Shown here: piece by piece, positions 13,810-59,778 of the stretch
Layout: the number at the start of each line of letters is the position of its first letter
Numbering within the stretch: position 1 is the stretch's first letter
Virus record (IMG/VR): IMGVR_UViG_3300026484_000053
Span: 62,001-126,000 of that record
Direction: 5' to 3' (one strand)
DNA length: 64,000 nucleotides
Origin: a virus
The notes under the pieces: model-generated
Told to the model about the DNA's origin: nothing
Seen by the model: the letters and a program-made list of their open reading frames with translations, nothing else
Databases searched by the model: none
Translations under genes and position numbers: made by a program

Positions 13810-14010
13810 ATGAAACTTCAAACTTCTATTAATGGTACGTTAAAAGAGTATCTTCATCTTTTAATAGGTAAAAAATTCAAGAGTGCTTCAGGTAACATTT
13901 ACGAAATTAATGTTCTACCTTTCGCTTTTTATGCTATATCTTTTAATGATAACGTATTATTTACGTCTAACAGAGCAGATGTTATAAATGATTGGCTGTA
14001 CAGAAACTAA
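13810..14010 (+). CDS. Hypothetical protein, 66 aa
   Basis: No family recognised. It is a small protein with alternating hydrophobic strands, no Cys and no clear membrane segment. ATG follows AAAGG. The stop overlaps the start of the primase-helicase (TAATG), indicating translational coupling with a replication gene. Confidence 0.65.
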   Translation: MKLQTSINGTLKEYLHLLIGKKFKSASGNIYEINVLPFAFYAISFNDNVLFTSNRADVINDWLYRN

Positions 14011-16700
14011 TGTATTTAACAATTTTTAACGCTATTAAAAGCACTAACAAAGCAAATAAAAAGCCTATATCTCAATATGATGACGAGTCATTTATTTTTT
14101 ATAATGTTTATTGCGCATCCTTAAGACAGTGTTTTAAGGTTCTATCTAACGAATACATCCTTAGCCAAACCATAAATATTGACGAACCTTTAAAACTGAC
14201 TAGAAGTGTAAAGGTTTTAAAAGAATTTAAAAGTGACAATTTAGAAATACTACCATTAGATTTAGATTACATTTATACGCAAGAGATGTGTTTAAAAGTT
14301 ATACAGTTTTTTAAAGATATGAACTTTAAATGTATATTAGGTAAAAGTAGAGGATTTAATAACAAAGATAAATTTACTCTTAAAGGATTTATCGTACTAG
14401 ACATTAAAAATGACAGAGCAGTAATATCAGGATTGCTAAATTACATCCAAACTTTAATGAATGAATATGGATTAGAAGGAGTTGAGTTAGACTGTGCTAT
14501 TAAAACAATAAATTCAGTGCAAAGCCCAGTCTTAAATAATGATGTTTTATATATTAATGAGTCAAGTAAAGCAAGAGTATTAAATAACACAGACTTTAAT
14601 ATTATAGAAGTGCAGTCTTATAACGATACGGTAGTTGATTTATCTAGCTTAAATACTAAAGAATCAGCATTAGACACTTGTTTAGAAATATTTGCACAAA
14701 AAGGATTTACAGCCGTATCGCAAAGAGAAGATACTAGCATTAATTTTAGTCATCCAAGTGAGAAGAAGTCTAAAGGTGGTTTCTTCTTCTTTAAAGAATC
14801 ACCAACTATAATGCACCATCCTAATAGTGCAAGGACTATTAATATAGCTCAAGAATTTAAACGTACCGCTATTGGTAAAGCATATTTTATTGAACGTGGA
14901 AAACTTATACAGAAGAATATGTTAGAAAAACCTGATTATGGTATATTCGTAAATGAAAGATACCTTAACGTAGAGCCTAAAATTAAAGAAATACAGGATT
15001 TTGTTCATAAAGATACAGAAGTTTTAAAGATAAAATCAGCTATGGGTACAGCTAAAACGAATATCATATCAGCAGTTATTAAAGAAGCTCAAATTAAAAA
15101 AGAAAAGTTAAGAGTTATTTTAGTGTCTAATAGAGTAAGTGTAGCAAGAGATTTTGCTGATAAGTATGAAGAATATAATATGTCATATTATAAAGAAGTC
15201 CAAAACAGTAAAACAGAGCCTTTTAATCTTATAGTACAGTTTGATAGCCTTTATAAATTTAAAGTGCATGAATATGATATTGTCATTTTTGACGAGTTTA
15301 TAAGTCTTTTATTGCATCATCAAAGTCCGTTAGGTACGAATGGTAATTTAAACGCTGCAAAATTCAGAGTTTTATTAAATAAGAAAATTCTATGTTGCGA
15401 TGCTTTTCTTACTGGATACGAAGACGTTTTCTTTAAAGACAGAAAAATAGTACAGTTTGCTAACAAATATCGTGACGATGTTAAACTTATAGAGTATAAA
15501 GATAAAGGTAGATTTTGTAAAGATATAATAAACAATTCACTTTCACTTAAAGAAGGCGAACATATTAGCGCATCTTTTACTTCTTTAAATATGCTGAAAG
15601 TTGTACAACAGGAGTTACTTTCAAAAGATATAAGGGTAATCAGTCTTACAGGAGAGACACCAGATACTACTAGAGAATTAATTTATAAAAGATTTAAAGA
15701 AGACAGCCACAACGCATTTCAGGTTATACTTTATACTCCTACACTTACAGTAGGAGTAAGTAATGTTAATAACGTATTACAGCACTACCATTATGACTCT
15801 AGTATGAGTTGTGACGTTATTAGTTCATTACAAATGATTAAAAGATCTAGAACAGCTAAAGAGATACGATTTTATTTAGAAGATAAAAAGGCAATTAACG
15901 AAACGTCGGCTGCTAAACTAAATGAGATAGCTAAAAACAATATTGTAGAGTTCTACAATAACAGTGATAAAACTCTTCTAGTAAAATTAAATGAAGATAC
16001 AGGAGAGGTTGAACTTACTAAATTAGCTTACTATCTTAACAATATTAATGCTTTTAGTAATCTATTAAGCAACGATCATGCTAATGCTTTTAAAGTTCTG
16101 CTGAAATACCAATTTAATGGCGGCTACGATTCTGCTGAAATTAATGAAGAAATTTATGAATTCGACTATAAATCAAAAATAAAAGAGATTAAAACTAAAG
16201 AAAAAGAAAACGCTGCTAATTTATTGGAAGAATATTCTTATTTTAATTATACTGAGCAAGATGTTAACGACGCTAAGTTTAGTACTATAGAACTTAAAGA
16301 CGAAGAAAAAGTTATGCTGATGAAAGATAATATCCAAAAGCTATTTAAGCACCAAATACCAAAACATATTTTAAATGAACTTGTTAAGATAGATCAAAAA
16401 GATAATATAGTTAGAAAGATTAAAAACTACCATTTGTTTAGTGGCGACAAAGATTATTTAATGTATAAGCTTAGTTTTACAGTAAGTAATAATCTTCATG
16501 TTAGTAAGCGATTCGTTAAAAATATTAAGATAGCTTGTGAAGTGAAAGAGTTAAAAGACGCTTACTCTAACAACGATATAAAACGTATAGAAAGTAACAT
16601 ACAAGGTTTTGGAGAATTTATAAAAGAAATAGGTTATGTTAAACAAAGAAACAAGTACAGATTAGATAAAAGAATACTAACATATCTAAAGTATCTATAG
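14010..16700 (+). CDS. Primase-helicase-like replication protein, paralogue 1, 896 aa
   Basis: The central part resembles the superfamily 2 helicases of the herpes origin-binding-protein type: IKSAMGTAKT (residues 342-350), VSNRVSVARDFA, VQFDSLYKF, VIFDEF (D428, E429), then SASFTSL and TVGVSNVNNV, with QMIKRSRTA as the motif VI region. The Walker A has Ala where Gly normally precedes Lys. The N-terminus has PLDLD (about residue 85) and later LDCAIKTINSVQSP, which may be an archaeo-eukaryotic primase domain. Likely a replication initiator or helicase. The start is ATG 14010, coupled to the preceding stop. A paralogue follows. Confidence 0.7.
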   Translation: MYLTIFNAIKSTNKANKKPISQYDDESFIFYNVYCASLRQCFKVLSNEYILSQTINIDEPLKLTRSVKVLKEFKSDNLEILPLDLDYIYTQEMCLKVIQFFKDMNFKCILGKSRGFNNKDKFTLKGFIVLDIKNDRAVISGLLNYIQTLMNEYGLEGVELDCAIKTINSVQSPVLNNDVLYINESSKARVLNNTDFNIIEVQSYNDTVVDLSSLNTKESALDTCLEIFAQKGFTAVSQREDTSINFSHPSEKKSKGGFFFFKESPTIMHHPNSARTINIAQEFKRTAIGKAYFIERGKLIQKNMLEKPDYGIFVNERYLNVEPKIKEIQDFVHKDTEVLKIKSAMGTAKTNIISAVIKEAQIKKEKLRVILVSNRVSVARDFADKYEEYNMSYYKEVQNSKTEPFNLIVQFDSLYKFKVHEYDIVIFDEFISLLLHHQSPLGTNGNLNAAKFRVLLNKKILCCDAFLTGYEDVFFKDRKIVQFANKYRDDVKLIEYKDKGRFCKDIINNSLSLKEGEHISASFTSLNMLKVVQQELLSKDIRVISLTGETPDTTRELIYKRFKEDSHNAFQVILYTPTLTVGVSNVNNVLQHYHYDSSMSCDVISSLQMIKRSRTAKEIRFYLEDKKAINETSAAKLNEIAKNNIVEFYNNSDKTLLVKLNEDTGEVELTKLAYYLNNINAFSNLLSNDHANAFKVLLKYQFNGGYDSAEINEEIYEFDYKSKIKEIKTKEKENAANLLEEYSYFNYTEQDVNDAKFSTIELKDEEKVMLMKDNIQKLFKHQIPKHILNELVKIDQKDNIVRKIKNYHLFSGDKDYLMYKLSFTVSNNLHVSKRFVKNIKIACEVKELKDAYSNNDIKRIESNIQGFGEFIKEIGYVKQRNKYRLDKRILTYLKYL

Positions 16701-16781: not shown

Positions 16782-19403
16782 ATGCATGAACATAAAACTA
16801 AAATAACTTTATTTGACGGTCAAGGAGATACTAAAATTCCTTTTTCTACAAGAGAAGATGGATCTTTTATTTTTGCCACTCTAGAATTAAGTTACACTGA
16901 AATAGTAAAAGTTAAGCAAGATTCTTATTCCCTAGCTTATTCATATAATATACAAGAACCAATATTAACTCACAGAGCAAAATTATCAAACGTAGCGCCT
17001 ATAAATGATGGAGATATTGTAGATTCAATTACGTTTAATATTAAAGTCGAAGATATTAATATAGAAGACGCTATAAATGTACTTAGAAACACACAATATG
17101 ATATGATAGCACTAAAATCAAAGCAAGGATTAACTTGCATATTAAAAGTACAAATGGAACTAAAATATATTTACTACAGCATGATGGAACTTCAAAAATT
17201 ATTAGGTTCTCAATGTAGCATTAAAGTACCTAACATTTACGACATCGAGAAACCGTTTGAAAACCTTGAGGTACTTTACGAAAGAAACACTAATAAAGCT
17301 TTACATAATATAATGATAGAGAAAGAACTTGAAAACACATCTTCTATGACATTTATAGAGATATGTTTATCAGAATTTGAAAATATGGGATACGAACAAA
17401 CTAGCATAAAATCACTTAAAGGTAAACCAGGAGTGTTCTTATTTACTAAAGACCAGGATAAATTTCATTTTAACGAAGAATATCCCATTAAAATGCAAGG
17501 TATTTACGGTGCAAAATCTGAGTCAATATTTTATCTTATAAACAAAACAAAGCAAGGTAAAGAGTGGCTTCAAAACAGAAATAAAAAAGAACAGATAAAC
17601 GCTTTAGAAAATAAAAAATCTAAGAAAAGCAAAAATAATATCATAATAAACGAGAGATATCTTAAGGCTGAAGATTTAAAAGCAGTTACAAATAAATTCA
17701 TTCAAACTAAGGACTGCGTTTTAAAGATAAAATCAGCTATGGGTACAGCAAAAAGTGACGTTATTTATGATATTATAAAGCAAGCACATGAAGATGGCAT
17801 GAAGATTATAGTTGTTTCAAACAGAATATCAGTAGCGAAAGATTTTGCAGAAAAGTACAATATGGATATCTATCAAAATATGTACAACAGTTCTAATTCG
17901 ATAGTAGTACAGTTTGATAGTTTACACCGTTATAATCCAGCTGATTATGACTTAGTAGTATTTGATGAGTTTATGAGCTTATTGCTGCACCATAGAACTT
18001 CTTTAGGTACAAACAGTAACATTAACGCTATTAAATTTAAAATCCTACTCCAAAAAAGAGTAATACTTGCTGATGCCTTTCTTACTGGATACGAAGACGA
18101 GTTTATAAAAGATCGTAAAATTATACAGATAGAAAATACTTATAGAGATTGTACTGATCTTTTTAACTACTCTAATAAAGAGCACTTTATACAAACTTTA
18201 ATAGACGAGTCTCAAAAGTTAAAAGATGAAGAGCATATAAGTGCGTCGTTTACTTCATTAGCAGCATTAAAATTGGTATACTACTCTCTTAAAAAGAAAG
18301 GTGTAAAGGTAGTTAAACTAACAAGTGAAACGTCTGAAGATACAAGGCAGTTAATTTATAAAAGATTTAAGGAGCAAACGCATATTGCATTTCAGGTTAT
18401 ACTTTATACTCCTACACTTACAGTAGGAGTAAGTAATGTTAATAACGTCACTAAACATTTTCATTATGACTCTAGTATGAGTTGCGACGTTATTAGTTCA
18501 TTACAGATGATTAAAAGATCTAGAACAGCTAAAGAGATACATTTCTTTTTGCAGAATAGACAACTTCATAAAGACATCGATCTTGAAAGTATAAACAGAA
18601 GAGCTGAGCATAATGCTGTAAAATACTACGCTAATAAAGATAAAGCATTACTTTTAGATGTAGATTATGAAACAGGTGAGATGAAGCTTACACCTTTAGC
18701 GCATTATATTAACAAGATAGAAGTGTTTAACAATATCCTTATGAACAATCACAAGAATGCATTTTTAGTACTTCTATCTTACCAGTTTAATTCAGCACCT
18801 ATAGAAGTTAAAGGTAAAGTATCTTGGAAAATGAGAGATCTTACTAGACAAATAAAAGAAAAAGAATTACAAGACGCTTTAAGTGTTTTCGATAAATTTA
18901 AAGACGTTAAATTAAGTGATAAAGAAGTTAAAAGACTAAGATTTAAAACGTCAGAGTTATCAGATGAAGAAAAAGTAGCACAAATAAAACATGATATTCA
19001 ATCTATGTATAGCAAAGAAATTCCTCAAAAATCGCTAGACGAATTAACGCGTTTAGAAATAGAACAGAACTTTAAGTTTACTGATAAAGTTAAATTAAAT
19101 AAGATATTTCAAAACGAAGACGACAGTTATGCAAAATACGAATTATCTGAAGCTATAAGTAATAATATAGGAATGTTGCAAGATAATAATAAAGAGACAA
19201 TAAACTTTTTAAAATATCTTATTATTAACGATAACGCAGCATTAAAAGGATCTTATACTTTAGATGACATAAAAAGAATTGATTTCGAAAGAGGTAAAGG
19301 TTCTAAACTTGCTAATTTCTTAAAAAGCTTAGGATATACGTACAGCGCTGGTAAATGGGAAGTAGACCTAAGAGTTCTTGGTTATATTAAGTACCTTGAT
19401 TAA
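16782..19403 (+). CDS. Primase-helicase-like replication protein, paralogue 2, 873 aa
   Basis: Tandem paralogue of the preceding gene with the same helicase motifs: IKSAMGTAKS (about residue 320), VSNRISVAKDFA, VVFDEF, SASFTSL, TVGVSNVNNV and QMIKRSRTA. The variant Walker A (Ala before Lys) is shared. The N-terminal region does not keep the DLD motif of paralogue 1 and has diverged, so a primase activity may have been lost. Two stretches of the helicase core are nearly identical at nucleotide level to paralogue 1, including 62 perfect bases (18387-18448). A late box lies upstream. Confidence 0.68.
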   Translation: MHEHKTKITLFDGQGDTKIPFSTREDGSFIFATLELSYTEIVKVKQDSYSLAYSYNIQEPILTHRAKLSNVAPINDGDIVDSITFNIKVEDINIEDAINVLRNTQYDMIALKSKQGLTCILKVQMELKYIYYSMMELQKLLGSQCSIKVPNIYDIEKPFENLEVLYERNTNKALHNIMIEKELENTSSMTFIEICLSEFENMGYEQTSIKSLKGKPGVFLFTKDQDKFHFNEEYPIKMQGIYGAKSESIFYLINKTKQGKEWLQNRNKKEQINALENKKSKKSKNNIIINERYLKAEDLKAVTNKFIQTKDCVLKIKSAMGTAKSDVIYDIIKQAHEDGMKIIVVSNRISVAKDFAEKYNMDIYQNMYNSSNSIVVQFDSLHRYNPADYDLVVFDEFMSLLLHHRTSLGTNSNINAIKFKILLQKRVILADAFLTGYEDEFIKDRKIIQIENTYRDCTDLFNYSNKEHFIQTLIDESQKLKDEEHISASFTSLAALKLVYYSLKKKGVKVVKLTSETSEDTRQLIYKRFKEQTHIAFQVILYTPTLTVGVSNVNNVTKHFHYDSSMSCDVISSLQMIKRSRTAKEIHFFLQNRQLHKDIDLESINRRAEHNAVKYYANKDKALLLDVDYETGEMKLTPLAHYINKIEVFNNILMNNHKNAFLVLLSYQFNSAPIEVKGKVSWKMRDLTRQIKEKELQDALSVFDKFKDVKLSDKEVKRLRFKTSELSDEEKVAQIKHDIQSMYSKEIPQKSLDELTRLEIEQNFKFTDKVKLNKIFQNEDDSYAKYELSEAISNNIGMLQDNNKETINFLKYLIINDNAALKGSYTLDDIKRIDFERGKGSKLANFLKSLGYTYSAGKWEVDLRVLGYIKYLD

Positions 19404-23752: not shown

Positions 23753-24631
23753 ATGAAAGTAAACGAAACTGAAGGCATAGATGTAATTAATCAAGCCGAA
23801 CTATTAGGTAAGTTAGACAAGATAGTTCAGAAAAAATCGATAGCATATAGATGTAGTGATATGCAACCTCTTCAAGGTGGTAATGGAGTTATCTCTGGTA
23901 TAACTTATGACGCTGTACAAGACAAATTAAAAGTATTAAGTACTAATATTGAAGCTAGTACTGAAAGAATTAGAGCAGCACTTACTTCAGAAAGTACTGA
24001 AGACCTGAAAGCTATCTATGGAGAAGATATTATAGATGTTTTAGCATATTACTTAGCAGACGAACTTGTATACAGAATTGATACTAGATATCTTCAAATG
24101 ATAAAAACGAGAGCTAAAGCTTCTAAAAATCTTGTATTTAGTTCAGATTATGCGTTAGAACTAAATACAGTAATTAAAACTATTGTTATGAGAGTAAGCA
24201 AGTCTTTAAATGATCTTGCATTTAGTGATAGAAGAGCAAGTGGAGCGTTCTGTGTAGTTAATTCAGATGTTGCTGCGTTACTTGGATTCGATGCTCAAGG
24301 TGGTATTGATGGCGACTGTTCTTACCTTGGAGAATTAAGTGGAATTTCATTTTTTATTGACTTCACTAACGATAATTCTGGTACTGATGCTTGCGTATGT
24401 GGTATTAAAGGAAATGGAATTAACAGAGGAAGTACTGTTATAAGTCATTATAGAGAAGATTGGGTTAGCACTGTGGATCATACTAATGGATCTAACATTG
24501 AATTTCTTGTTGATAGAACAGCAATGAGTATTAATCCATTAGATAACGAGTTTTGGTTAGAAGGTGACGGAGAAAGCGCTTTCTTAGTAAAATTCGATGT
24601 TGATTTAACTGATGTGCATGCAGCTGTATAA
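23753..24631 (+). CDS. Second capsid-fold protein, possibly a gp24-like vertex protein, 292 aa
   Basis: The C-terminal half follows the same order of elements as the major capsid protein at 58450: SGAFCVVNSDVAALLG, a LSGISFFIDF strand, then a GIKGN turn and a closing FLVKFDVDL strand, matching VLLVSSNVVTVLEA, NGMTVVEDIF, VIYKGSN and ARRFSVVF. It lacks the N-terminal region of gp23-type proteins. T4 has gp24 as a vertex paralogue of gp23; the same job is likely here. It has its own late promoter cluster. Confidence 0.55.
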   Translation: MKVNETEGIDVINQAELLGKLDKIVQKKSIAYRCSDMQPLQGGNGVISGITYDAVQDKLKVLSTNIEASTERIRAALTSESTEDLKAIYGEDIIDVLAYYLADELVYRIDTRYLQMIKTRAKASKNLVFSSDYALELNTVIKTIVMRVSKSLNDLAFSDRRASGAFCVVNSDVAALLGFDAQGGIDGDCSYLGELSGISFFIDFTNDNSGTDACVCGIKGNGINRGSTVISHYREDWVSTVDHTNGSNIEFLVDRTAMSINPLDNEFWLEGDGESAFLVKFDVDLTDVHAAV

Positions 24632-32962: not shown

Positions 32963-34402
32963 ATGAATATTACAGTAGCAGGAGATGTTTACTTAGAAGA
33001 CGATACGTTAGTAGATTGTAAAATCGAAGTATTTGTTAAAACAACTTTAACAGGTTGGAGTGACATCAGAGATACAGAAGACACTTCTTACAATATAAAC
33101 TTAGGAGATCCTGATATTTCAGGTCAGGACAATGTACTTAAGATAACTAACTCCAGCACTGAATCTGTTCTTTTAGCTGCGTACTACCAAGGTTCTCGCA
33201 CAGACAACGACAATATACCAGATCAATTTTGCTATTATTTCTTTAACCTTGATGGTTCAGATCTTTATTTAAATGACTTATATCTTAAACCTTTACAGGC
33301 TATAGATTGTTCTTTATGGAATATTCCTGATACTCTTAATGTAAATGATGTACTTGTAGCAAAAAACGGTGCGACTAATGAAGAGTCTTATGTTAAAGAT
33401 GGTAAAACTTACTGGCACAAAAAATATTACGGATCTGAACTCGTTTATAACTTCGTCGGTACGTCTTTAACTGAATACAGGTTCTGGTACGACGACGAAG
33501 ATGAAGACGAGTACAGTACTACTAATGTGCACGTTCTTACTAGAAGTGGAGATATACATGTAGACATTCGTACTACTGATTATCTTGGAAGAACTAGAGA
33601 ATGTCATGACTCGCTAGAGATATATCACACAGCTTTTGCTTGCTTTAATAACAATAATCCTACTAAGAACCAAGAACTCGTAGTTACGTCATGTGCTGGA
33701 AGTACAACTGACTTCTCTGTAGACTATGTTATAGACGGAGAGTATTACAATACAGAAGATGTACAGATATTTGAATTAACAAAACACGACATAAAAGCTA
33801 CTCAGTACGTACACTTCTTTAATGGTTACGAAGATATAACTCTTGAATTAAGTAAAATAATCCAGATGACTAACATACCTCCTGAAATGGATCTTGTAGT
33901 TACAGAACCTTTAAACGACACGTTGCTTTATAAATTCGAGCATAACGGTACAGATGAAGATGGAACTATACAGCATACTCAATATGACATTTATAAGAAT
34001 GTTAAGTCCAGTGATGGAGAAGATAACTGGACTCTGTTCTACAGTACAGGTAAAACGCAACCGCAAGACTTCGAATATGATTTTAGTGCCGACATTGCAG
34101 AAATGCGTGTCGTTGTACAAGTATGGGATGATTCAGCTGCACAAGTACAACAAGAATATGAATTTACTGTAGAATGTCCAAGTAAAGGTGTTAGTTTTGA
34201 AAACGTAGACTGGACTAAAAAGATACGAACTATAGATTGGACGCCTAGAGTGATTAAAACACCTTGGTTAGAAAAACGTGTACCAATAGACTTTACAATA
34301 AAAATAACTAAAGTACCTTGGAATATTACAAAGCATCGTTTAGATTGGTCTATTCTAATAAATAAATTAAAGTTTACTCTTCGTAGAAGAGATATATTAT
34401 AG
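32963..34402 (+). CDS. Virion structural protein with Ig-like character, 479 aa
   Basis: No family recognised. It is beta-rich with repeated Asp/Thr/Tyr and internal GYEDITLELSKIIQ and VVVQVWDDSAAQVQQEYEF that look like Ig-like or fibronectin-like domains. The C-terminus has three copies of a W-x-I pattern (VDWTKKIRTIDW, TPRVIKTPW, IDFTIKITKVPW), a short repeat. Its stop abuts the next gene (TAG then ATG). Probably a fibre or baseplate-attached protein. Confidence 0.6.
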   Translation: MNITVAGDVYLEDDTLVDCKIEVFVKTTLTGWSDIRDTEDTSYNINLGDPDISGQDNVLKITNSSTESVLLAAYYQGSRTDNDNIPDQFCYYFFNLDGSDLYLNDLYLKPLQAIDCSLWNIPDTLNVNDVLVAKNGATNEESYVKDGKTYWHKKYYGSELVYNFVGTSLTEYRFWYDDEDEDEYSTTNVHVLTRSGDIHVDIRTTDYLGRTRECHDSLEIYHTAFACFNNNNPTKNQELVVTSCAGSTTDFSVDYVIDGEYYNTEDVQIFELTKHDIKATQYVHFFNGYEDITLELSKIIQMTNIPPEMDLVVTEPLNDTLLYKFEHNGTDEDGTIQHTQYDIYKNVKSSDGEDNWTLFYSTGKTQPQDFEYDFSADIAEMRVVVQVWDDSAAQVQQEYEFTVECPSKGVSFENVDWTKKIRTIDWTPRVIKTPWLEKRVPIDFTIKITKVPWNITKHRLDWSILINKLKFTLRRRDIL

Positions 34403-34408
34403 GAGCTA

Positions 34409-35032
34409 ATGATGGCAGAAATACAAACAGTAGAAGTTACAATAGGCGACAGCTCAGACTTATGGGAATTTTCAAGTAAGGACATACCAGTTCTTGATAT
34501 TAACTGGACAGGATCATGGACTATAGCAGAATCTATTGGCGAAACGCCAGTACTGCAAGGTAACTTAACTAAGAACATTGACATTTTTAATGAAGACTCA
34601 CTAATTAATGAACCGTTAAGAAATTCTTACAAGCTATTCGAGCCAGATGATGAAACAGTGACGTTTAATGATAACGTTCAAGATGGTAGTACAGTTACTG
34701 TTAGTGGTACAGTTACTAAAGACGGTGCAGCAGTGCCATCAAAGTACATTTACATTATTGTTAAAGGTCTATTCGTACCTCATTCAAGAACTATAAGAAC
34801 ACAGTGTGACGTTAATGGTGAATTTTCTGTTCAGCTAAACCTAGACATTACTCTTAAAACTCCTGCAGACTCTTTCTTTATTTTTCAATTAATGCCTACT
34901 GACAGCGAAACGTTACTTGAAAAGACTTATTATCTTACATGCGAAGTTAAACAAGACGACGCAGGTACTATTAAATTTAGAAAAGAGCTGCTTCAACTTA
35001 AACTAAAAATGATTAAGCAAGGTGTGATTTAA
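34409..35032 (+). CDS. Virion structural protein, beta-rich, 207 aa
   Basis: No family recognised. It has a central TVTFNDNVQDGSTVTVSGTV and VNGEFSVQLNLD, typical of a carboxypeptidase regulatory- or Ig-like sandwich, sharing style with the preceding gene. Two ATGs (34409 and 34412) follow AGGAG; the second has better spacing. It is the last gene of the plus-strand late block before the next promoter. Confidence 0.6.
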   Translation: MMAEIQTVEVTIGDSSDLWEFSSKDIPVLDINWTGSWTIAESIGETPVLQGNLTKNIDIFNEDSLINEPLRNSYKLFEPDDETVTFNDNVQDGSTVTVSGTVTKDGAAVPSKYIYIIVKGLFVPHSRTIRTQCDVNGEFSVQLNLDITLKTPADSFFIFQLMPTDSETLLEKTYYLTCEVKQDDAGTIKFRKELLQLKLKMIKQGVI

Positions 35033-35244
35033 CGTTACGCTGCTTAATCAGGCTTATTTAAGATTATAAACTATATAAGCAACACTTATCTTTCAATCCT
35101 CATCTAATGTAATACATTGTTAGTACGATCTAAAATTAACAAATCCAAGTATTAACCTGTAGACCTGACTAACTGTAAAATGCTCATACAGAGAGCATGT
35201 ATATAGATATAAGCAATCTTCATTTTGAAGCAATTTAATACCTG
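35033..35244. other. Gap after the late structural block
   Basis: About 260 bp without an ORF longer than about 60 codons. It holds one 6-bp hairpin (ATGCTC at 35180 with GAGCAT at 35193) followed by T/A-rich bases, and no tRNA cloverleaf was found. It probably carries the end of the structural operon and the lead-in to the promoter at 35245. Confidence 0.4.
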
Positions 35245-35266
35245 TTTAACAATATTATGATATAAT
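35245..35266 (+). promoter_or_regulatory. Bipartite promoter before the nucleotidyltransferase cassette
   Basis: TTTAAC (35245-35250), 10-nt spacer, TATAAT (35261-35266) with TG before it (TGATATAAT). It drives the three-gene cassette beginning at 35296. Confidence 0.65.
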
Positions 35267-35295: not shown

Positions 35296-36306
35296 ATGGG
35301 TGGAAATACCAAATGTATAAAAGACGGTGTAGAATATATGCCTAGTAAGTTAAAAGTAAATAAAAACGCTTTAAAAGAGATATCTCAAATACTTAAAGAA
35401 CTTAATATAGAAGAATACTATTCAGGTAGTACGTCACTATTTTTTAATAATTATGATGATATAATAAAGCACAAGCAATATATGGGTGACGTAGACGTTA
35501 TGGTTGACAAGGAAAAAGTTAAATATTACATTAAAGTTATAAGATCTCATCATAAGTACAAATGCGACAATATAAACATTCAAAAACCAGGTAACACTTT
35601 AATAGCTTTATTTAAGTTAGATAGTAGTCCTGAAGATGAGTTAACCCAATTCGATTTTGAGCTACTCGATTTTAAAGATAATAAGCCAACAGAATGGTCT
35701 ATGTTTAGCCACTCTAGTCATATAGAAGATGCAACAATTGTAAAAGCAGTATTTCATAAACACCTTCTAAGAGCTCTTGTTGGTATGAGCCACATTAAAA
35801 AGGCAGTAGTCTTTACACCTAGTAGTACTAAAGAAAATCCAAAATTAAAATCTAAGCAACCACCATACATAAGACTATATAATTTTGGTGTAGATTCTGG
35901 TGTTGGTCAAGCGTATGAGAAAATTAATGATGTAATGTACAGAGAGTTAAGAAAGAATAAAGGTGGAATTAAAGGTGAAGTACAGTATAATAAAGATTTA
36001 GATTATTGTGCAAAGATCGCTTTAGATAAAAACGCTACAAAATGTGATATCATGTCATTAGAAAGAATAATAAAATATGTTCAGCAAAACGAAATATGTA
36101 AAGTACATAAACAGCTCGTATTTTATAGATTTTATGAGATTGTATTTGGTATAGGTTGTCAGGCTCAGCCTATAGAAGACAATGCAGAAGATGATATTGC
36201 AGCAAAATTAAAAGCATATCATTACGTTAGAAAAGCGTGGCAATTAGACGTAGACGAATGCTTAGAAGACACTGTTGAAAAGTATCTAGAAAGAGTATGG
36301 AACTAA
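35296..36306 (+). CDS. Polymerase beta-fold nucleotidyltransferase-like protein, 336 aa
   Basis: Residues 42-67 have the signature of the superfamily: YSGSTSLFF (G44, S45) followed by MGDVDVMVD (D65, D67), that is GS-x(n)-DxD. A third acidic residue may be in FDFELLDF (about 115). The rest is helical. Such proteins transfer nucleotides to RNA, DNA or proteins; the acceptor is unknown. It is the first gene of a cassette with a nuclease and a ligase, so a nucleic acid repair or modification role is likely. AAAGG precedes ATG. Confidence 0.65.
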   Translation: MGGNTKCIKDGVEYMPSKLKVNKNALKEISQILKELNIEEYYSGSTSLFFNNYDDIIKHKQYMGDVDVMVDKEKVKYYIKVIRSHHKYKCDNINIQKPGNTLIALFKLDSSPEDELTQFDFELLDFKDNKPTEWSMFSHSSHIEDATIVKAVFHKHLLRALVGMSHIKKAVVFTPSSTKENPKLKSKQPPYIRLYNFGVDSGVGQAYEKINDVMYRELRKNKGGIKGEVQYNKDLDYCAKIALDKNATKCDIMSLERIIKYVQQNEICKVHKQLVFYRFYEIVFGIGCQAQPIEDNAEDDIAAKLKAYHYVRKAWQLDVDECLEDTVEKYLERVWN

Positions 36307-36325
36307 CGTATGGAACTAACGTATG
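36295..36325 (+). repeat. 13-bp tandem repeat across a stop/start junction
   Basis: AACTAACGTATGG is present twice plus a partial copy. It carries the TAA stop of the preceding gene and an ATG in each copy; the second ATG (36323) begins the next gene. Confidence 0.85.
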
Positions 36326-37327
36326 AAAAATAAACTAATTAGCAGTATTAAAGAAAGTAATTTATCAGATTCTGAACTAGCGTATATTTACAATCAAGTT
36401 ATGTACGTACATGTAGAATCATCTGTAAACTTGTTATTTCAACAATGCTCTGCACACGCAGAGTCTGAAAAAGTTATAAGAGAGTACATTAAGAATTCTG
36501 CTCAGCCTTATAAAGATAAAATACGAGTTATACAATATATCACTACGCATCGTATTGACAAAAACAACTTTTTACAGAATGGCGTAGCGCAAAAACTAAG
36601 TGATTTTTACAGAATGAATTATGCCTGGATTTACAACGTACCGTTCTTTAAAGAATTTGTTAAGTGGCTATCAGAGCTTAAGCTAAATCCACAAGGCCAA
36701 GGTGCTACTGGAGTAGGACGTGGCGAACATTTACTTATTATACTTTGCAAGAATGGTGAATTTGCTACTAAAGGTGACGTTCTTATAGGTAACGATCAGG
36801 TAGAAGTTAAGAATGGCGGCGAAATATACAAAGCACCAAAACAATATCGTGAAATAGAACAAATTATAGAGTTAGAGCTTGGAGTTAAGAACGTGACTAA
36901 TCTAGGTAGATTAGTAAAATGTTTTAATAATTTAGACAGAGACAGACAGTACATCTTAGACATGTACAGTGGCATTTACAAGCATATGTTTAGTGACGTA
37001 CCAGAAGTATATGATAAGATAGATGATATTTTTAACGCTACATTAGATAAAGACGGCAGGTGCTCTAAAGAAGATATACTATTAGCTTTTAAGAGATTAA
37101 ATTTCTCATTATACCAGGAAGAATACGGATTCGATTATTGCGTTTTCTTTAACTTCAAAGACGGAGACGAGATGATCAGTGCAGTACAACATGAAAGCCA
37201 AATCTGTAAAGAAAATGGTTATAAAATAGATGGATTGAACTTTAAAAATGGATATAAAGGCAGTGCTCTAACAATTAAATTAGACGTATCTAGGTCTAGA
37301 AAGGATTATTTAAATGGCAAAAGATAG
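36323..37327 (+). CDS. PD-(D/E)XK nuclease-like protein, 334 aa
   Basis: Residues 132-163 contain the pattern GRGEHLLIILC (E135), GDVLIG (D152) and VEVKNGGE (E161, K163), the classical E-x(n)-D-x(9)-ExK active site of restriction-endonuclease-fold nucleases. Similar proteins occur in T4-like phages beside nucleic acid enzymes. The N-terminal 125 residues are helical. It overlaps the ligase gene by 14 nt, so all three genes are probably co-translated. Confidence 0.6.
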   Translation: MKNKLISSIKESNLSDSELAYIYNQVMYVHVESSVNLLFQQCSAHAESEKVIREYIKNSAQPYKDKIRVIQYITTHRIDKNNFLQNGVAQKLSDFYRMNYAWIYNVPFFKEFVKWLSELKLNPQGQGATGVGRGEHLLIILCKNGEFATKGDVLIGNDQVEVKNGGEIYKAPKQYREIEQIIELELGVKNVTNLGRLVKCFNNLDRDRQYILDMYSGIYKHMFSDVPEVYDKIDDIFNATLDKDGRCSKEDILLAFKRLNFSLYQEEYGFDYCVFFNFKDGDEMISAVQHESQICKENGYKIDGLNFKNGYKGSALTIKLDVSRSRKDYLNGKR

Positions 37328-38603
37328 ATTGGATGTAAGTATTAAAAACGTAGAAAAACTTACTAAAAAACACTCTAAAGAATTAAATGAATATATCTCT
37401 AGTAAAGGTATAATAAAGATAGAAGAGAAAATAGATGGTATTAAAATTAACATTATTAAAGCGCATAACACAGGTGATTTAAAACGTGACTTAAAAGTTT
37501 ACTATAAAAACGATTTACTTATATGGGATGAATTTAATTACCTTTCAGACAGTGATATTAAAATGTTTAGTACAGGTAATGCTCAATTTAAATTCTGTTT
37601 AGATGAAGTGTTACGATTTAATAAAGAAGAAATAAAAAAATTAGAAATTAATACAGAGCTATTCTTTGAATACGTTATGCGTAAGAGTACTTTAAGCCAT
37701 ACTTACACAGAATTATTTAATCTTATTTTTATAAAGGCTACAACTGAACAAGATATGAGTTATTTTAAACAAAGATATCCCATCTACGTAGTGAATAATA
37801 ATTATAAAGCACAGTCGCTTGATTTTATGATAAAAAGTTTAAAACAAGATCTTAAAGAATATAGTTCTGTTTATGGTGGAATCAAAGGTACTGCTGAAGG
37901 TTTTGTTATCAAAACCGATATAGGATTATTTAAATTACAGAAAGAATCTCAAAACGACCAAGAAGAAAGAACTAAAATAAAGAACAAGCACCGTATGGAA
38001 CCTTATGCAGAAGAATTATACTGGTCTCAAGTAAGATCAAGTGCTTTATACTTTATGGAAAATAATAGTCACGTTTTAGCATTACCGTATCATAGTAAAA
38101 AGAATAAGGTACAAGTATTAGATGATATAATGGGTAATGTAAAATTTATAACGCACAAGAGACTGCCAGGAAATAACGGTGCGCTATTCATAGGCAAGTT
38201 TAGAGTACTTACAGTACAACATCTTAAAATAATTAAAGAAGCATATAAGGAATACGATACGTTAACTATATGCGTAGTTACTAGTAAAGACACTAAAAGT
38301 ACTAAAGAATTCAGACTTAGCGTGCTTAATGAAGTATTAAAAAAGAATAATATAAAAGCTAACGTGATTAAACATGGAAGTGGAAATATATTTGGTATAA
38401 TGAATAAAAGTGCTTGCAATATTAATGTTATTGTAGCAGGTACAGATAGAGTAGAAGCTTATAGAGAAACTCTTAAAAATAATCCTGACTTAAGTGTATG
38501 CGAAATAAAAAGAACAGATGAAGATTGTAGCGCTACTAAAGCATTTAAAGATATGAGTCTTGTACCTGAAGAGATCAGGTACAGATATTGCGAGTTCGTC
38601 TAA
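37314..38603 (+). CDS. Nucleic acid ligase-like domain fused to a cytidylyltransferase-like domain, 429 aa
   Basis: N-terminal domain: EEKIDGIK (K39, motif I KxDG), FFEYVM (about 113, motif III), EGFVIK and FKLQK (about 201 and 211, motifs IV and V), matching ATP-dependent DNA/RNA ligases. C-terminal domain: LFIGKFRVLTVQHLKII (about 285) is a degenerate GxFxPxHxGH motif, VIVAGTDR follows and SATKAF (about 410) stands in for the ISSTxxR motif of nicotinamide mononucleotide adenylyltransferases. A ligase joined to a nucleotidyltransferase could couple strand sealing to cofactor or end chemistry. Its last bases overlap the convergent gene. Confidence 0.7.
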   Translation: MAKDRLDVSIKNVEKLTKKHSKELNEYISSKGIIKIEEKIDGIKINIIKAHNTGDLKRDLKVYYKNDLLIWDEFNYLSDSDIKMFSTGNAQFKFCLDEVLRFNKEEIKKLEINTELFFEYVMRKSTLSHTYTELFNLIFIKATTEQDMSYFKQRYPIYVVNNNYKAQSLDFMIKSLKQDLKEYSSVYGGIKGTAEGFVIKTDIGLFKLQKESQNDQEERTKIKNKHRMEPYAEELYWSQVRSSALYFMENNSHVLALPYHSKKNKVQVLDDIMGNVKFITHKRLPGNNGALFIGKFRVLTVQHLKIIKEAYKEYDTLTICVVTSKDTKSTKEFRLSVLNEVLKKNNIKANVIKHGSGNIFGIMNKSACNINVIVAGTDRVEAYRETLKNNPDLSVCEIKRTDEDCSATKAFKDMSLVPEEIRYRYCEFV

Positions 38604-56704: not shown

Positions 56705-57538
56705 ATGAAATTAATTTTAGAAGAAGCTATTGAGTTAGACGGTTCTATAGAAGAAGAACTTAATGAGTCTAGTGGCGCTAAGGAGAGAAACTATTACCTT
56801 AGCGGTATATTTTCTACTCCAGAAGTAAAAAACAGAAACGGTAGAGTTTATTCAAGAGAACTTTGGGAATCATGCGTTGCTGAATACCAGAAAGAAATCT
56901 CTGAGAAAACTATTAATTCTCTTGGAGAATTAGAACATCCACCAAGATCAGAAGTAGATCCTATGCAAGCTGTTATTAGAATAATAGAACTTAAGATGAA
57001 AGATGGTAATGTTTGGGGTAAAGCTAAAATACTTAATAATAACGAACCTGAGACAAATAAATTAAAGGGTTTAGTTAAAGAAGGTATTAAGATTGGTGTT
57101 TCTTCAAGAGGTATTGGTTCAGTATCTAGCACAGGTGTTGTTGAGTCGTTTAAACTAATTTGTTACGATGTTGTAAAAACTCCAAGTGATTATAATGCTA
57201 ATCTATCTGGTGTAACTGAATCTGCTGGATTAATGCTTGAAAATGGTATTCTGAAAGATAAAGAGTTTAAAGTACTTGAAAGTGGCTGTATTGGCGAATG
57301 TTCGTTAGATTCTAAATTAGAAGAATCAGAATCAGGACTTAAAGCTTCAAACCTAGAAGTATTCAAGCAAATATTAGAATCTAAAGGTGCATCTATAATG
57401 TGTGACTTAAGTATATCTGAAAAAGAAGAAGTTCTTAAAGAATTTATTAATATTATTACGTCTACTAATGAAGATACATCACTTAAAGACGAAGAATTAG
57501 GTGTTAAACTGTTAGAGGCGTTATCGGTAGTGAAATAG
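56705..57538 (+). CDS. Prohead core protease (gp21-like), 277 aa
   Basis: RNGRVYSRELWESCVAEYQ, LGELEHPP (His near residue 78), then KIGVSSRGIGSV (Ser near 132) are the signature of T4-type prohead proteases (peptidase family U9/herpes-protease-like fold). It cleaves the scaffold and head proteins, typically after Glu. The ATG at 56705 is chosen over the longer frame beginning at 56480 because that part is the antiphase of the repeat gene and AGAGG precedes this ATG. The scaffold gene follows. Confidence 0.9.
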   Translation: MKLILEEAIELDGSIEEELNESSGAKERNYYLSGIFSTPEVKNRNGRVYSRELWESCVAEYQKEISEKTINSLGELEHPPRSEVDPMQAVIRIIELKMKDGNVWGKAKILNNNEPETNKLKGLVKEGIKIGVSSRGIGSVSSTGVVESFKLICYDVVKTPSDYNANLSGVTESAGLMLENGILKDKEFKVLESGCIGECSLDSKLEESESGLKASNLEVFKQILESKGASIMCDLSISEKEEVLKEFINIITSTNEDTSLKDEELGVKLLEALSVVK

Positions 57539-58449: not shown

Positions 58450-59778
58450 ATGTTATTAACAGAAAAATACCAAGAATTACTAGAGTCTAAAAACTTTAAA
58501 GCTTTAGAAGATATTCAAAAAGATTCAATGGCTGTTCTTTTAGAGAACCAAGAAAAAGCGCTTTCAGAAGCTACAGTAGACGCAGACGTTGCTGATTTTA
58601 CACAAATCTTTTTACCATTAACAAGAAGAGTTCAACCAGCATTAATTGCTAATACTTTACTAGGTAACCAACCTTTAAATAAACCAACTGGTTTCATTTA
58701 CTCTTTAAGCTTCCATTACACAGGTATGGGTGCAGATGCTAACGATAAAACTGCTGGAAGAATTTCTCCTGTTGCTGGTGGTCAGATCATGACTGTTGTT
58801 TTAGAAGCTGGACAAGTTTTACCAAAAGGTACTATTGTTACTGTTGGCGGTGTTGCTGCTACTGTTATCCATTCTGAAGAAGGTGCTGTTTTAATTGATG
58901 CTAAAATTGGTTCTGCTGGAGCTGATATCAACGACGAAGCTGATTCTACTAAATTAGCTACATGTGTTAACACATTCTCTGACGAATTAGGTTTCAGAAA
59001 AGTACTTAAAGCTTACACTGGTTCTTTACCAACATCTGAAGCTGAATTATTAGGTTACAACATTGCTGAAATTGGATTTACAATTGCACAAGTTGGTGTT
59101 TCTGTTAGATCAAGAAAACTTAAAGCTGCTTACACAATGGAAATGTACCAAGATTTAAAAGCTGTTCATGGTTTAAGCGCTGATAAAATTCTTTTAGAGC
59201 AAATGTCAAATGAAATGAAATTAGAAATTGATAGAGAAGTTATTGATTTTGTTAATCTTAATGCTGAATCTGCTGGAGATTTTAAAATTGGTGGTACTAC
59301 TGCTGATGGTTCAACTAGATTTGAATTAGAAGGTATGGCTCATATCGGAATTAAAATTGCTAACGAAGCTAGAAAAATTGCTAAAAGTACAAGAAGAGGT
59401 AAAGGTAATGTTTTACTTGTATCTTCTAATGTTGTTACTGTTTTAGAAGCTATTAAAGGTTTCAAAGCATTTGATGTTAAATCTGCTGTAACTGCTGGTG
59501 TTAATGCTGTTGGTACATTTAATGGTATGACTGTTGTAGAAGATATTTTCTCTGATGCAGATTACTGTACAGTAATCTATAAAGGTTCTAACACTGATGC
59601 TATCGGTTATTACTCTCCATATGTTACATCTTCACCAATTAGATTAGTAGATCCTTCTAACGGTCAACCTTCAATCTTAATTAATACAAGATATGCACTT
59701 ACTAAAAACCCAATGGGCGGAGAAGTATATGCAAGAAGATTCTCAGTTGTATTCTCAAATGACGCAATCATCGGGTAA
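58450..59778 (+). CDS. Major capsid protein (gp23-like), 442 aa
   Basis: IFLPLTRRVQPALIANTLLG, then EIGFTIAQVGVSVRSRKLKA, YTMEMYQDLKAVHGL and EIDREVIDFVN are near-copies of conserved T4 gp23 blocks. The N-terminal 55-60 residues are acidic and probably removed by gp21 protease. Codon use here is notably T/A-ended and regular, as in highly expressed genes. A terminator hairpin follows. A second capsid-fold gene is at 23753. Confidence 0.95.
   Translation: MLLTEKYQELLESKNFKALEDIQKDSMAVLLENQEKALSEATVDADVADFTQIFLPLTRRVQPALIANTLLGNQPLNKPTGFIYSLSFHYTGMGADANDKTAGRISPVAGGQIMTVVLEAGQVLPKGTIVTVGGVAATVIHSEEGAVLIDAKIGSAGADINDEADSTKLATCVNTFSDELGFRKVLKAYTGSLPTSEAELLGYNIAEIGFTIAQVGVSVRSRKLKAAYTMEMYQDLKAVHGLSADKILLEQMSNEMKLEIDREVIDFVNLNAESAGDFKIGGTTADGSTRFELEGMAHIGIKIANEARKIAKSTRRGKGNVLLVSSNVVTVLEAIKGFKAFDVKSAVTAGVNAVGTFNGMTVVEDIFSDADYCTVIYKGSNTDAIGYYSPYVTSSPIRLVDPSNGQPSILINTRYALTKNPMGGEVYARRFSVVFSNDAIIG

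What the first reader, a model, noticed from the sequence alone, without database searches (positions are those of the whole stretch)
35296..38603. Three-gene cassette: nucleotidyltransferase, PD-(D/E)XK nuclease and ligase-cytidylyltransferase fusion
Three genes sharing one bipartite promoter and overlapping or closely spaced encode a GS-DxD nucleotidyltransferase, an ExK nuclease and a KxDG ligase fused to a domain with degenerate GxFxPxHxGH and SATxxx motifs like NMN adenylyltransferases. Cutting, adding nucleotides and sealing in one transcript suggests an end-repair or RNA-repair pathway, or a counter-defence that mends cleaved tRNA or NAD. The ligase-transferase fusion is unusual.
Basis: partly seen in the sequence, partly recalled or inferred. 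Interest (0 to 1): 0.75.

Follow-up and report, generated by a model that had tools for sequence, protein, structure and literature searches.

The report
Phage nucleic-acid end-processing gene cassette
Three neighbouring genes of a T4-like virus of bacteria encode a nucleotide-adding enzyme, a nuclease-like protein and a ligase fused to an adenylyltransferase-like domain, and relatives in many other phages show that these parts travel together and are often built to be carried inside the virus head, so they probably process broken nucleic-acid ends during infection, although this has not been tested.

Summary
In detail: three same-strand genes (35296-38603) with one promoter, a 16-nt gap and a 14-nt overlap. 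Gene 1 is a Pol-beta-type nucleotidyltransferase; gene 2 has a PD-(D/E)XK motif set; gene 3 is an Rnl2-like ligase domain plus a PPAT/NMNAT-like (HIGH) domain. Its core is a widespread, undescribed module: of 61 non-redundant loci chosen on gene 1 alone, 50 have a ligase domain and 50 a HIGH domain within 6 kb (47 both). The order is nucleotidyltransferase > ligase > HIGH in most; parts are separate, partly fused, or one polypeptide. The nuclease is a less constant partner.

In 55 non-redundant relatives the nucleotidyltransferase has an N-terminal extension ending in Glu directly before an invariant Gly-Gly-Asn, matching T4 prohead-protease cleavage and suggesting virion packaging. In the window it starts Met-Gly-Gly-Asn without a leader, under an early/middle-type promoter shared with replication genes.

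Best reading: a nucleic-acid end-processing module (cut/trim, add, seal); substrate and HIGH-domain role unknown. NAD synthesis is weakly supported (degenerate motifs). tRNA mending is possible, but the phage also carries a conventional RNA ligase, kinase-like and RlaP set. No activity or virion content was shown.

The parts
35231..35266 (+). Bipartite early/middle-type promoter (two TTTAA boxes, extended -10 TGnTATAAT)
   Evidence: One of 37 genome sites vs 0.9 in mononucleotide shuffles; others precede DNA ligase, topoisomerase-like, helicase-like and RlaP genes; no TATAAATA late promoter here although late promoters precede neighbouring structural genes
35296..36306 (+). Pol-beta-superfamily nucleotidyltransferase, N-terminus MGGN (phrog_19290, unknown function)
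   Evidence: phrog_19290 E 6e-26; invariant GS, GDxD, D120 in 32 relatives; AF2 pLDDT 88.6, Foldseek top hits DNA polymerase beta, prob 0.98 but E 6e-3
36323..37327 (+). PD-(D/E)XK-like nuclease (motif level)
   Evidence: G-x-G-x-G-E...KGD...EVK shared with L016, L021, Vibrio phages, L109; no significant family-library hit; fold not predicted
37314..38603 (+). Ligase + HIGH (PPAT/NMNAT-like) fusion (phrog_27149, unknown function)
   Evidence: E 1e-67; AF2 pLDDT 85.1, pTM 0.80
37314..38160 (+). Ligase domain: covalent nucleotidyltransferase motifs I (K39xDG), III (E119), IV (E195G), V (K207)
   Evidence: Foldseek BFVD matches to viral RNA ligases / Rnl2
38172..38600 (+). HIGH-superfamily domain with degenerate (T-V-Q-H) and S-A-T motifs
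   Evidence: Pfam CTP_transf_like E 0.003; Foldseek PDB: phosphopantetheine and NMN adenylyltransferases, E 4e-6 to 2e-4, TMt about 0.7
56774..57223 (+). gp21-type prohead protease (context: the enzyme type that would cut the leaders seen in relatives)
   Evidence: PF03420 E 1.8e-33 in the window's genome

Best explanation
The cassette is a nucleic-acid end-processing module of T4-like phages. The PD-(D/E)XK protein cuts or trims an end, the Pol-beta-type enzyme adds one or a few nucleotides to a 3' end, and the Rnl2-like domain adenylylates the 5' phosphate and seals. The fused HIGH domain catalyses A(5')pp(5') chemistry on the same 5' phosphate, or reverses stalled App ends. In this phage it is made with the replication genes; in many relatives the same enzymes appear to be head-targeted, cut by the prohead protease to expose an N-terminal Gly-Gly-Asn, and injected. 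SHOWN by computation: gene layout, catalytic motifs, folds of gene 3 and (weakly) gene 1, association of NTase+ligase+HIGH, promoter class, the Glu|GGN pattern. INFERRED: all catalysis, cooperation, RNA rather than DNA as substrate, packaging and injection, the nuclease's and the HIGH domain's roles.
For: Catalytic residues of the ligase domain (K39, D41, G42, E119, E195, G196, K207) invariant over 24 proteins down to about 20% identity; NTase residues invariant over 32. Fold: ligase half matches viral RNA ligases/Rnl2 and polynucleotide kinase-ligase. Association: 47 of 61 non-redundant NTase-selected loci have both ligase and HIGH domains within 6 kb. Fusions link the parts: NTase-ligase-HIGH polypeptides of 1003-1775 aa, ligase+HIGH (phrog_27149, phrog_455), nuclease+ligase (phrog_12709). 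Xanthomonas phage X1 has four overlapping genes NTase, PD-(D/E)XK-like, ligase, HIGH in the window's order but unfused. Some relatives add a polynucleotide-kinase-like gene (L093, L106; fused to NTase in L057). Replication-class promoter. Glu directly before GGN in 55 of 58 extended NTases, the other three having Met there.
Against: No enzyme was assayed and no relative of any of the three families was found to have a known function. The NTase fold match is weak (best E 6e-3, TM about 0.3). The nuclease is not a constant partner and its fold was not predicted. NTase and ligase-HIGH lie about 66 kb apart in Campylobacter phages, so adjacency is not essential. The phage has a conventional RNA ligase, kinase-like and RlaP set elsewhere, so a second RNA-repair set needs a reason. 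In cyanophages and a KVP40-like phage the ligase/HIGH genes sit beside helicase/recombination genes, which points to DNA as much as RNA. Published CP220 virion bands (11 proteins, PMC2853527) do not include the NTase or ligase.
Confidence: 0.5

Rival explanations
1. The module acts on DNA: it repairs or joins broken phage DNA ends during recombination-dependent replication, an analogue of end joining with its own polymerase, nuclease and ligase.
For: Promoter shared with DNA ligase, topoisomerase-like and helicase-like genes; in S-PM2, S-CAM9, HTVC008M and EniLVp02 the ligase/HIGH genes follow uvsX/gp41-type replication genes and the EniLVp02 HIGH protein carries a UvsW.1 domain; NTase fold search is led by DNA polymerases beta and mu.
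Against: The ligase half matches RNA ligases, with no DNA ligase named among the listed viral hits; the phage has its own DNA ligase; terminal RNA transferases also appear among the weak NTase matches.
Confidence: 0.2
2. It is specifically a counter-defence that mends tRNA cut by host anticodon nucleases.
For: Rnl2-like ligase plus nucleotide-adding enzyme is the logic of known tRNA repair; reviews predict RlaP restores lost nucleotides before ligation (PMC7824862); kinase-like partners in some relatives.
Against: The NTase is not RlaP by Pfam and a separate RlaP, kinase-like gene and RNA ligase are present; no 3'-phosphatase or kinase in the cassette; only one tRNA gene in the phage; the nuclease and HIGH domain are unexplained.
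Confidence: 0.13
3. Small-molecule or protein nucleotidylation: HIGH and NTase domains attach NMPs to a metabolite, cofactor or host protein, the ligase domain being a nucleotide-loading or capping module.
For: HIGH domain is structurally PPAT/NMNAT; Pol-beta-type NTases include enzymes that modify proteins and small molecules (general knowledge); injected enzymes of T4 modify host proteins (general knowledge).
Against: Does not explain an Rnl2-like ligase with intact motifs I, III, IV and V or nuclease and kinase-like partners; HIGH motifs degenerate in the window clade.
Confidence: 0.12
4. The enzymes are remnants with a structural role in head assembly or DNA packaging.
For: L005-type clusters and L034 lie just after the major head protein gene; head-leader-like N-termini.
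Against: Catalytic residues invariant across very divergent proteins; non-late promoter and no leader in the window.
Confidence: 0.05

Closest known systems
T4 RNA ligase 2 (Rnl2) family
   Same: Ligase half has motifs I, III, IV and V and its model matches viral RNA ligases/Rnl2
   Different: No Pfam RNA_ligase call for the window protein; no sequence match in the PDB; fused to a HIGH domain
RlaP (RNA-ligase-associated Pol-beta NTase, PF10127)
   Same: Pol-beta-type NTase associated with an RNA-ligase-like protein
   Different: Window NTase gives no PF10127 hit at E<=1; the genome has a separate RlaP; invariant N-terminal GGN
Phosphopantetheine / NMN adenylyltransferases (PF01467, CoaD, NadM)
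   Same: Fold of the C-terminal half; final His and the Ser-x-Thr motif kept
   Different: First His and Gly of HxGH and the Arg of ISSTxxR missing in the window; Pfam score 18.2 against cut-off 21
Cyanophage 'cytitidyltransferase' and DUF6267 (PF19782; phrog_395, 3041, 455)
   Same: HIGH domain with a KWDG ligase-like neighbour or fusion, in some next to a PD-(D/E)XK-like gene
   Different: No GGN NTase seen next to them in the regions read; DUF6267 was annotated as unknown function and no held paper names it
T4 internal head proteins with capsid-targeting sequence (IPI-III, Alt)
   Same: Relatives' NTases (and some ligases, kinase-like proteins) begin with a short leader ending in (hydrophobic)-x-E before G/S; T4 leaders are removed by gp21 and internal protein I is injected (PMC3012670, PMC5694885)
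   Different: Window proteins lack the NTase and ligase leader; packaging not shown for any relative

Membership tests
Pol-beta-superfamily nucleotidyltransferase | GS, DxD and third carboxylate | tested here: met
   G44 S45, D65/D67, D120 invariant in 32 relatives
Pol-beta-superfamily nucleotidyltransferase | Pol-beta fold | tested here: inconclusive
   Confident model (pLDDT 88.6), top hits Pol beta/mu with prob up to 0.98 but E 6e-3 and TM 0.3
RlaP (PF10127) | Match to the family profile | tested here: not met
   No PF10127 hit for the window NTase at E<=1; RlaP found elsewhere in the genome
Rnl2-like RNA ligase (PF09414) | Covalent nucleotidyltransferase motifs I, III, IV, V | tested here: met
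Rnl2-like RNA ligase (PF09414) | Profile match above cut-off | tested here: not met
   None for the window; L005 relative E 0.0076, 16.8 bits against 27
Rnl2-like RNA ligase (PF09414) | Fold shared with RNA ligases | tested here: met
   BFVD hits to viral RNA ligases/Rnl2, E 5e-9 to 3e-5; several have high global rmsd because the alignment spans two domains
Rnl2-like RNA ligase (PF09414) | Adenylylation and sealing of RNA | not testable with these tools
   needs enzymology
NMNAT/PPAT (HIGH) adenylyltransferase | Fold | tested here: met
NMNAT/PPAT (HIGH) adenylyltransferase | (H/T)xGH and ISSTxxR motifs | tested here: not met
   TVQH and SATKAF in the window; intact (HxGH, ISGTxMR) in L005-type relatives
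PD-(D/E)XK nuclease | E ... D ... (D/E)xK motif set | tested here: met
   Shared by window, L016, L021, Vibrio and L109 proteins
PD-(D/E)XK nuclease | Restriction-endonuclease-like fold | not tested
T4 Pnkp/Rnl tRNA-repair pathway | Polynucleotide kinase/3'-phosphatase partner in the operon | tested here: not met
   None in the cassette; kinase-like gene at G000:160118
T4-type head-targeted internal protein | N-terminal leader ending in (I/L)xE cleavage site | tested here: not met
   Window NTase starts MGGN; pattern present in 55 non-redundant relatives

The most novel reading that the evidence does not exclude
A previously unrecognised, modular phage system (GGN nucleotidyltransferase + RNA-ligase-like domain + HIGH adenylyltransferase, with a PD-(D/E)XK or kinase-like partner) that many T4-like phages pack into the head. 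The prohead protease activates it by exposing Gly-Gly-Asn, in some cases by cutting multi-enzyme polyproteins. It would be delivered with the DNA to repair or edit nucleic-acid ends in the first minutes of infection, while other phages, such as this one, make the mature form directly as an early/middle product.
Probability: 0.3. Interest if true: 0.85.

Novelty: new variant of a known kind. Interest (0 to 1): 0.64.

Why it matters
If right, several large phage families now annotated as unknown function or 'cytitidyltransferase' (phrog_19290, 27149, 455, 12709, 395; DUF6267) form one functional system. The HIGH-domain part alone matched 567 sequenced phage records, mostly cyanophages. The Glu|GGN pattern gives a simple proteomic test for enzymes carried in the head, a class so far exemplified by T4 internal proteins and Alt. 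It also gives a concrete set of proteins in which to look for RNA or DNA end chemistry that conventional phage repair kits do not cover.

Tried and rejected
Direct tblastn of the nuclease against named phages: no match. Single-sequence scans of IMG/VR with genes 1 and 2: nothing; gene 3 gave one locus, L005, which opened the family. First direct alignment of window and Vibrio nucleases by hhalign: no signal; joined only after L016/L021 were found. NTase profile against solved structures: no hit; ligase profiles: no meaningful hit; nuclease profile: chance hits only. hhalign between the two ligase groups: correct motif register but not significant. NTase scan of GTDB genomes: none, patterns were few, so absence is provisional. 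Generic promoter/terminator scan: no excess over shuffles; the specific class needed a genome-wide look. A loose leader regex for other window proteins is not informative: 118 of 751 unrelated ORFs match. Virion proteomics: the IBB_35 and CP21 tables could not be read (supplement or figure), CP220 bands negative. NAD repair demoted because of degenerate motifs.
Full report
WHAT IS THERE. The window is 62001-126000 of a 193.7-kb virus record with T4-like terminase, portal, major head protein, tail sheath and baseplate genes and a gp21-type prohead protease at window 56774-57223. Among the virion genes lie three + strand genes, 35296-36306, 36323-37327 and 37314-38603, with a 16-nt gap and a 14-nt overlap.

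DOMAINS. Gene 1 belongs to phrog_19290 and gene 3 to phrog_27149, both of unknown function. Gene 1: GS, GDxD and D120 are invariant in 32 relatives; its AF2 model is confident (pLDDT 88.6) and its best PDB matches are DNA polymerases beta and mu, but weak (E 6e-3, TM about 0.3). Gene 2 has the set G-x-G-x-G-E ... KGD ... EVK, shared with L016, L021, Vibrio phages and L109; it has no significant family hit and was not modelled. Gene 3: the N-terminal half has ligase motifs I, III, IV and V invariant in 24 proteins and its model (pLDDT 85, pTM 0.80) matches viral RNA ligases and Rnl2 proteins; the C-terminal half matches phosphopantetheine and NMN adenylyltransferases. In the window clade the HxGH motif has decayed to T-V-Q-H and ISSTxxR to SATKAF; in the L005-type clade both are intact.

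RELATIVES. Tblastn found genes 1 and 3 in the same 21 phage records: 15 Campylobacter Firehammervirus-type and 6 Vibrio Va1-like. In Vibrio phages they lie near each other with a PD-(D/E)XK-like gene just after gene 3; in Campylobacter phages they are about 66 kb apart. Xanthomonas phage X1 has four overlapping genes in the order NTase, PD-(D/E)XK-like, ligase, HIGH: the window's order, unfused. A profile scan of IMG/VR with gene 1 gave 107 relatives, 80 kept. Local HMM searches on these showed ligase and HIGH domains beside or fused to the NTase: as separate genes, as ligase-HIGH fusions, or as one polypeptide NTase-ligase-HIGH of 1003-1775 aa. Because these loci were chosen on gene 1 alone, the count is a fair test: of 61 non-redundant loci, 50 have a ligase domain and 50 a HIGH domain within 6 kb, 47 both, 8 neither, three of those being Campylobacter. 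The order NTase > ligase > HIGH is usual; exceptions are L078 and L057 (ligase-HIGH upstream), L079 (HIGH before NTase), L074 (ligase first) and L088 (HIGH first). The nuclease of the window type was found at only a few of these loci (L016, L021, L037).

Further afield, cyanophages, Pelagibacter phage HTVC008M and the KVP40-like EniLVp02 carry a KWDG ligase-like protein (DUF6267), a HIGH protein and, in HTVC008M and EniLVp02, a PD-(D/E)XK-like neighbour. phrog_12709 joins nuclease and ligase regions and phrog_455 joins ligase and HIGH regions. HTVC008M, L093, L057 and L037 add a polynucleotide-kinase-like protein. No NTase relative was found in GTDB genomes with the patterns used. No held paper names DUF6267.

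THE GGN N-TERMINUS. Of 69 non-redundant NTases, 11 start MGGN and 58 have residues before Gly-Gly-Asn; in 55 of the 58 the residue before it is Glu, and a hydrophobic residue sits two before that in 57. The three exceptions have Met there and may simply start at that Met. Typical leaders are MKSFKQYILE|GGN and MILNELFRNPKLALSE|GGN. In L074 a ligase and in L088 a HIGH domain precede (M/R)E|GGN inside one polypeptide. Some ligases and kinase-like proteins also begin with such leaders, e.g. MNFVQYINE|GKEQLDIS. T4 internal head proteins use a capsid-targeting leader removed by gp21, and internal protein I is injected (PMC3012670; PMC5694885). The simplest reading is that these enzymes are packaged and matured in the prohead, but no virion data confirm it: the CP220 gel lists 11 proteins without them and the other tables were not readable here. 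The window's NTase and ligase start at the position that would be the mature N-terminus, so here no packaging is implied; Met removal before Gly (general knowledge) would expose the same GGN.

TIMING. Structural genes in the window follow TATAAATA late promoters; the cassette does not. Its promoter belongs to a class with 37 genome sites against 0.9 in shuffles, all on the + strand, which also precede genes recognisable as DNA ligase, a topoisomerase II-like protein, a helicase-like protein and RlaP (the DNA ligase and RlaP are supported by profiles, the other two by reading the sequence). So expression is probably early or middle; timing was not measured.

MECHANISM. I judge a nucleic-acid end-processing role most likely (0.5): trimming, 3' nucleotide addition, 5' adenylylation and sealing. 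The HIGH domain is the puzzle. Ligase step 2 and NMNAT both make an A(5')pp(5')N linkage, so a HIGH domain fused to a ligase could make or reverse App ends; this is a hypothesis. Whether RNA or DNA is the substrate is open: the ligase fold says RNA, the gene neighbours and promoter class say DNA replication. A conventional RNA ligase, RlaP and kinase-like gene elsewhere in the genome make simple duplication of tRNA repair less likely.

VERDICT. Observation confirmed; interpretation partly supported. The module looks real, conserved and undescribed in the papers searched, made of known enzyme kinds in a new combination: a new variant of a known kind, with a more radical packaged-enzyme reading that the evidence allows but does not show.

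Noticed in passing
L119:15834-16221 (G000:C1 about 180334-180721) and L119:15628-15703: The phage genome encodes a tmRNA (tag APQEVAAA) and a tRNA-Thr next to it.
   Followed up: no
G000:C1:160118-160591, 161506-161964 and 34218-34835: Separate polynucleotide-kinase-like (phrog_505), RlaP (PF10127) and RNA-ligase (PF09414) genes: a conventional RNA-repair set distinct from the cassette.
   Followed up: partly
G000:C1, 37 sites incl. window 527, 12939, 13758, 35245, 59883, 63416: A phage-specific promoter class TTTAA-N-TTTAA-N-TGnTATAAT, all on the + strand, distinct from TATAAATA late promoters.
   Followed up: partly
G000:C1 about 6047, 22838, 29212, 193643: A repeated early-gene family (MTNRNREIKTIT...VRELKLKSACKDG...) with near-identical promoters, including one copy cut by the record's end.
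   Followed up: no
window 13992-16700 and 16782-19403: Two adjacent large genes both match the same helicase family (phrog_10417), probably a tandem duplication.
   Followed up: no
window 23753-24631: A short second Gp23-like head protein (292 aa) besides the main one at 58450-59778.
   Followed up: no
L015:8862-9539 and L030:8876-9544: Proteins that look like GNAT acetyltransferases by eye and start with MITFKEYLLGE / MTSFKEYLQE, beside the NTase: possible further head-targeted enzymes.
   Followed up: no
L037:10797-12206: A kinase-like domain fused to a second, different NTase family whose junction reads LNE|GGMAFPG.
   Followed up: no
BFVD A0A6J7WPK9 and A0A6J5S5M9: Two proteins named 'Prohead protease' match part of the ligase-HIGH model; they may be fusions of the protease with one of these domains.
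   Followed up: no
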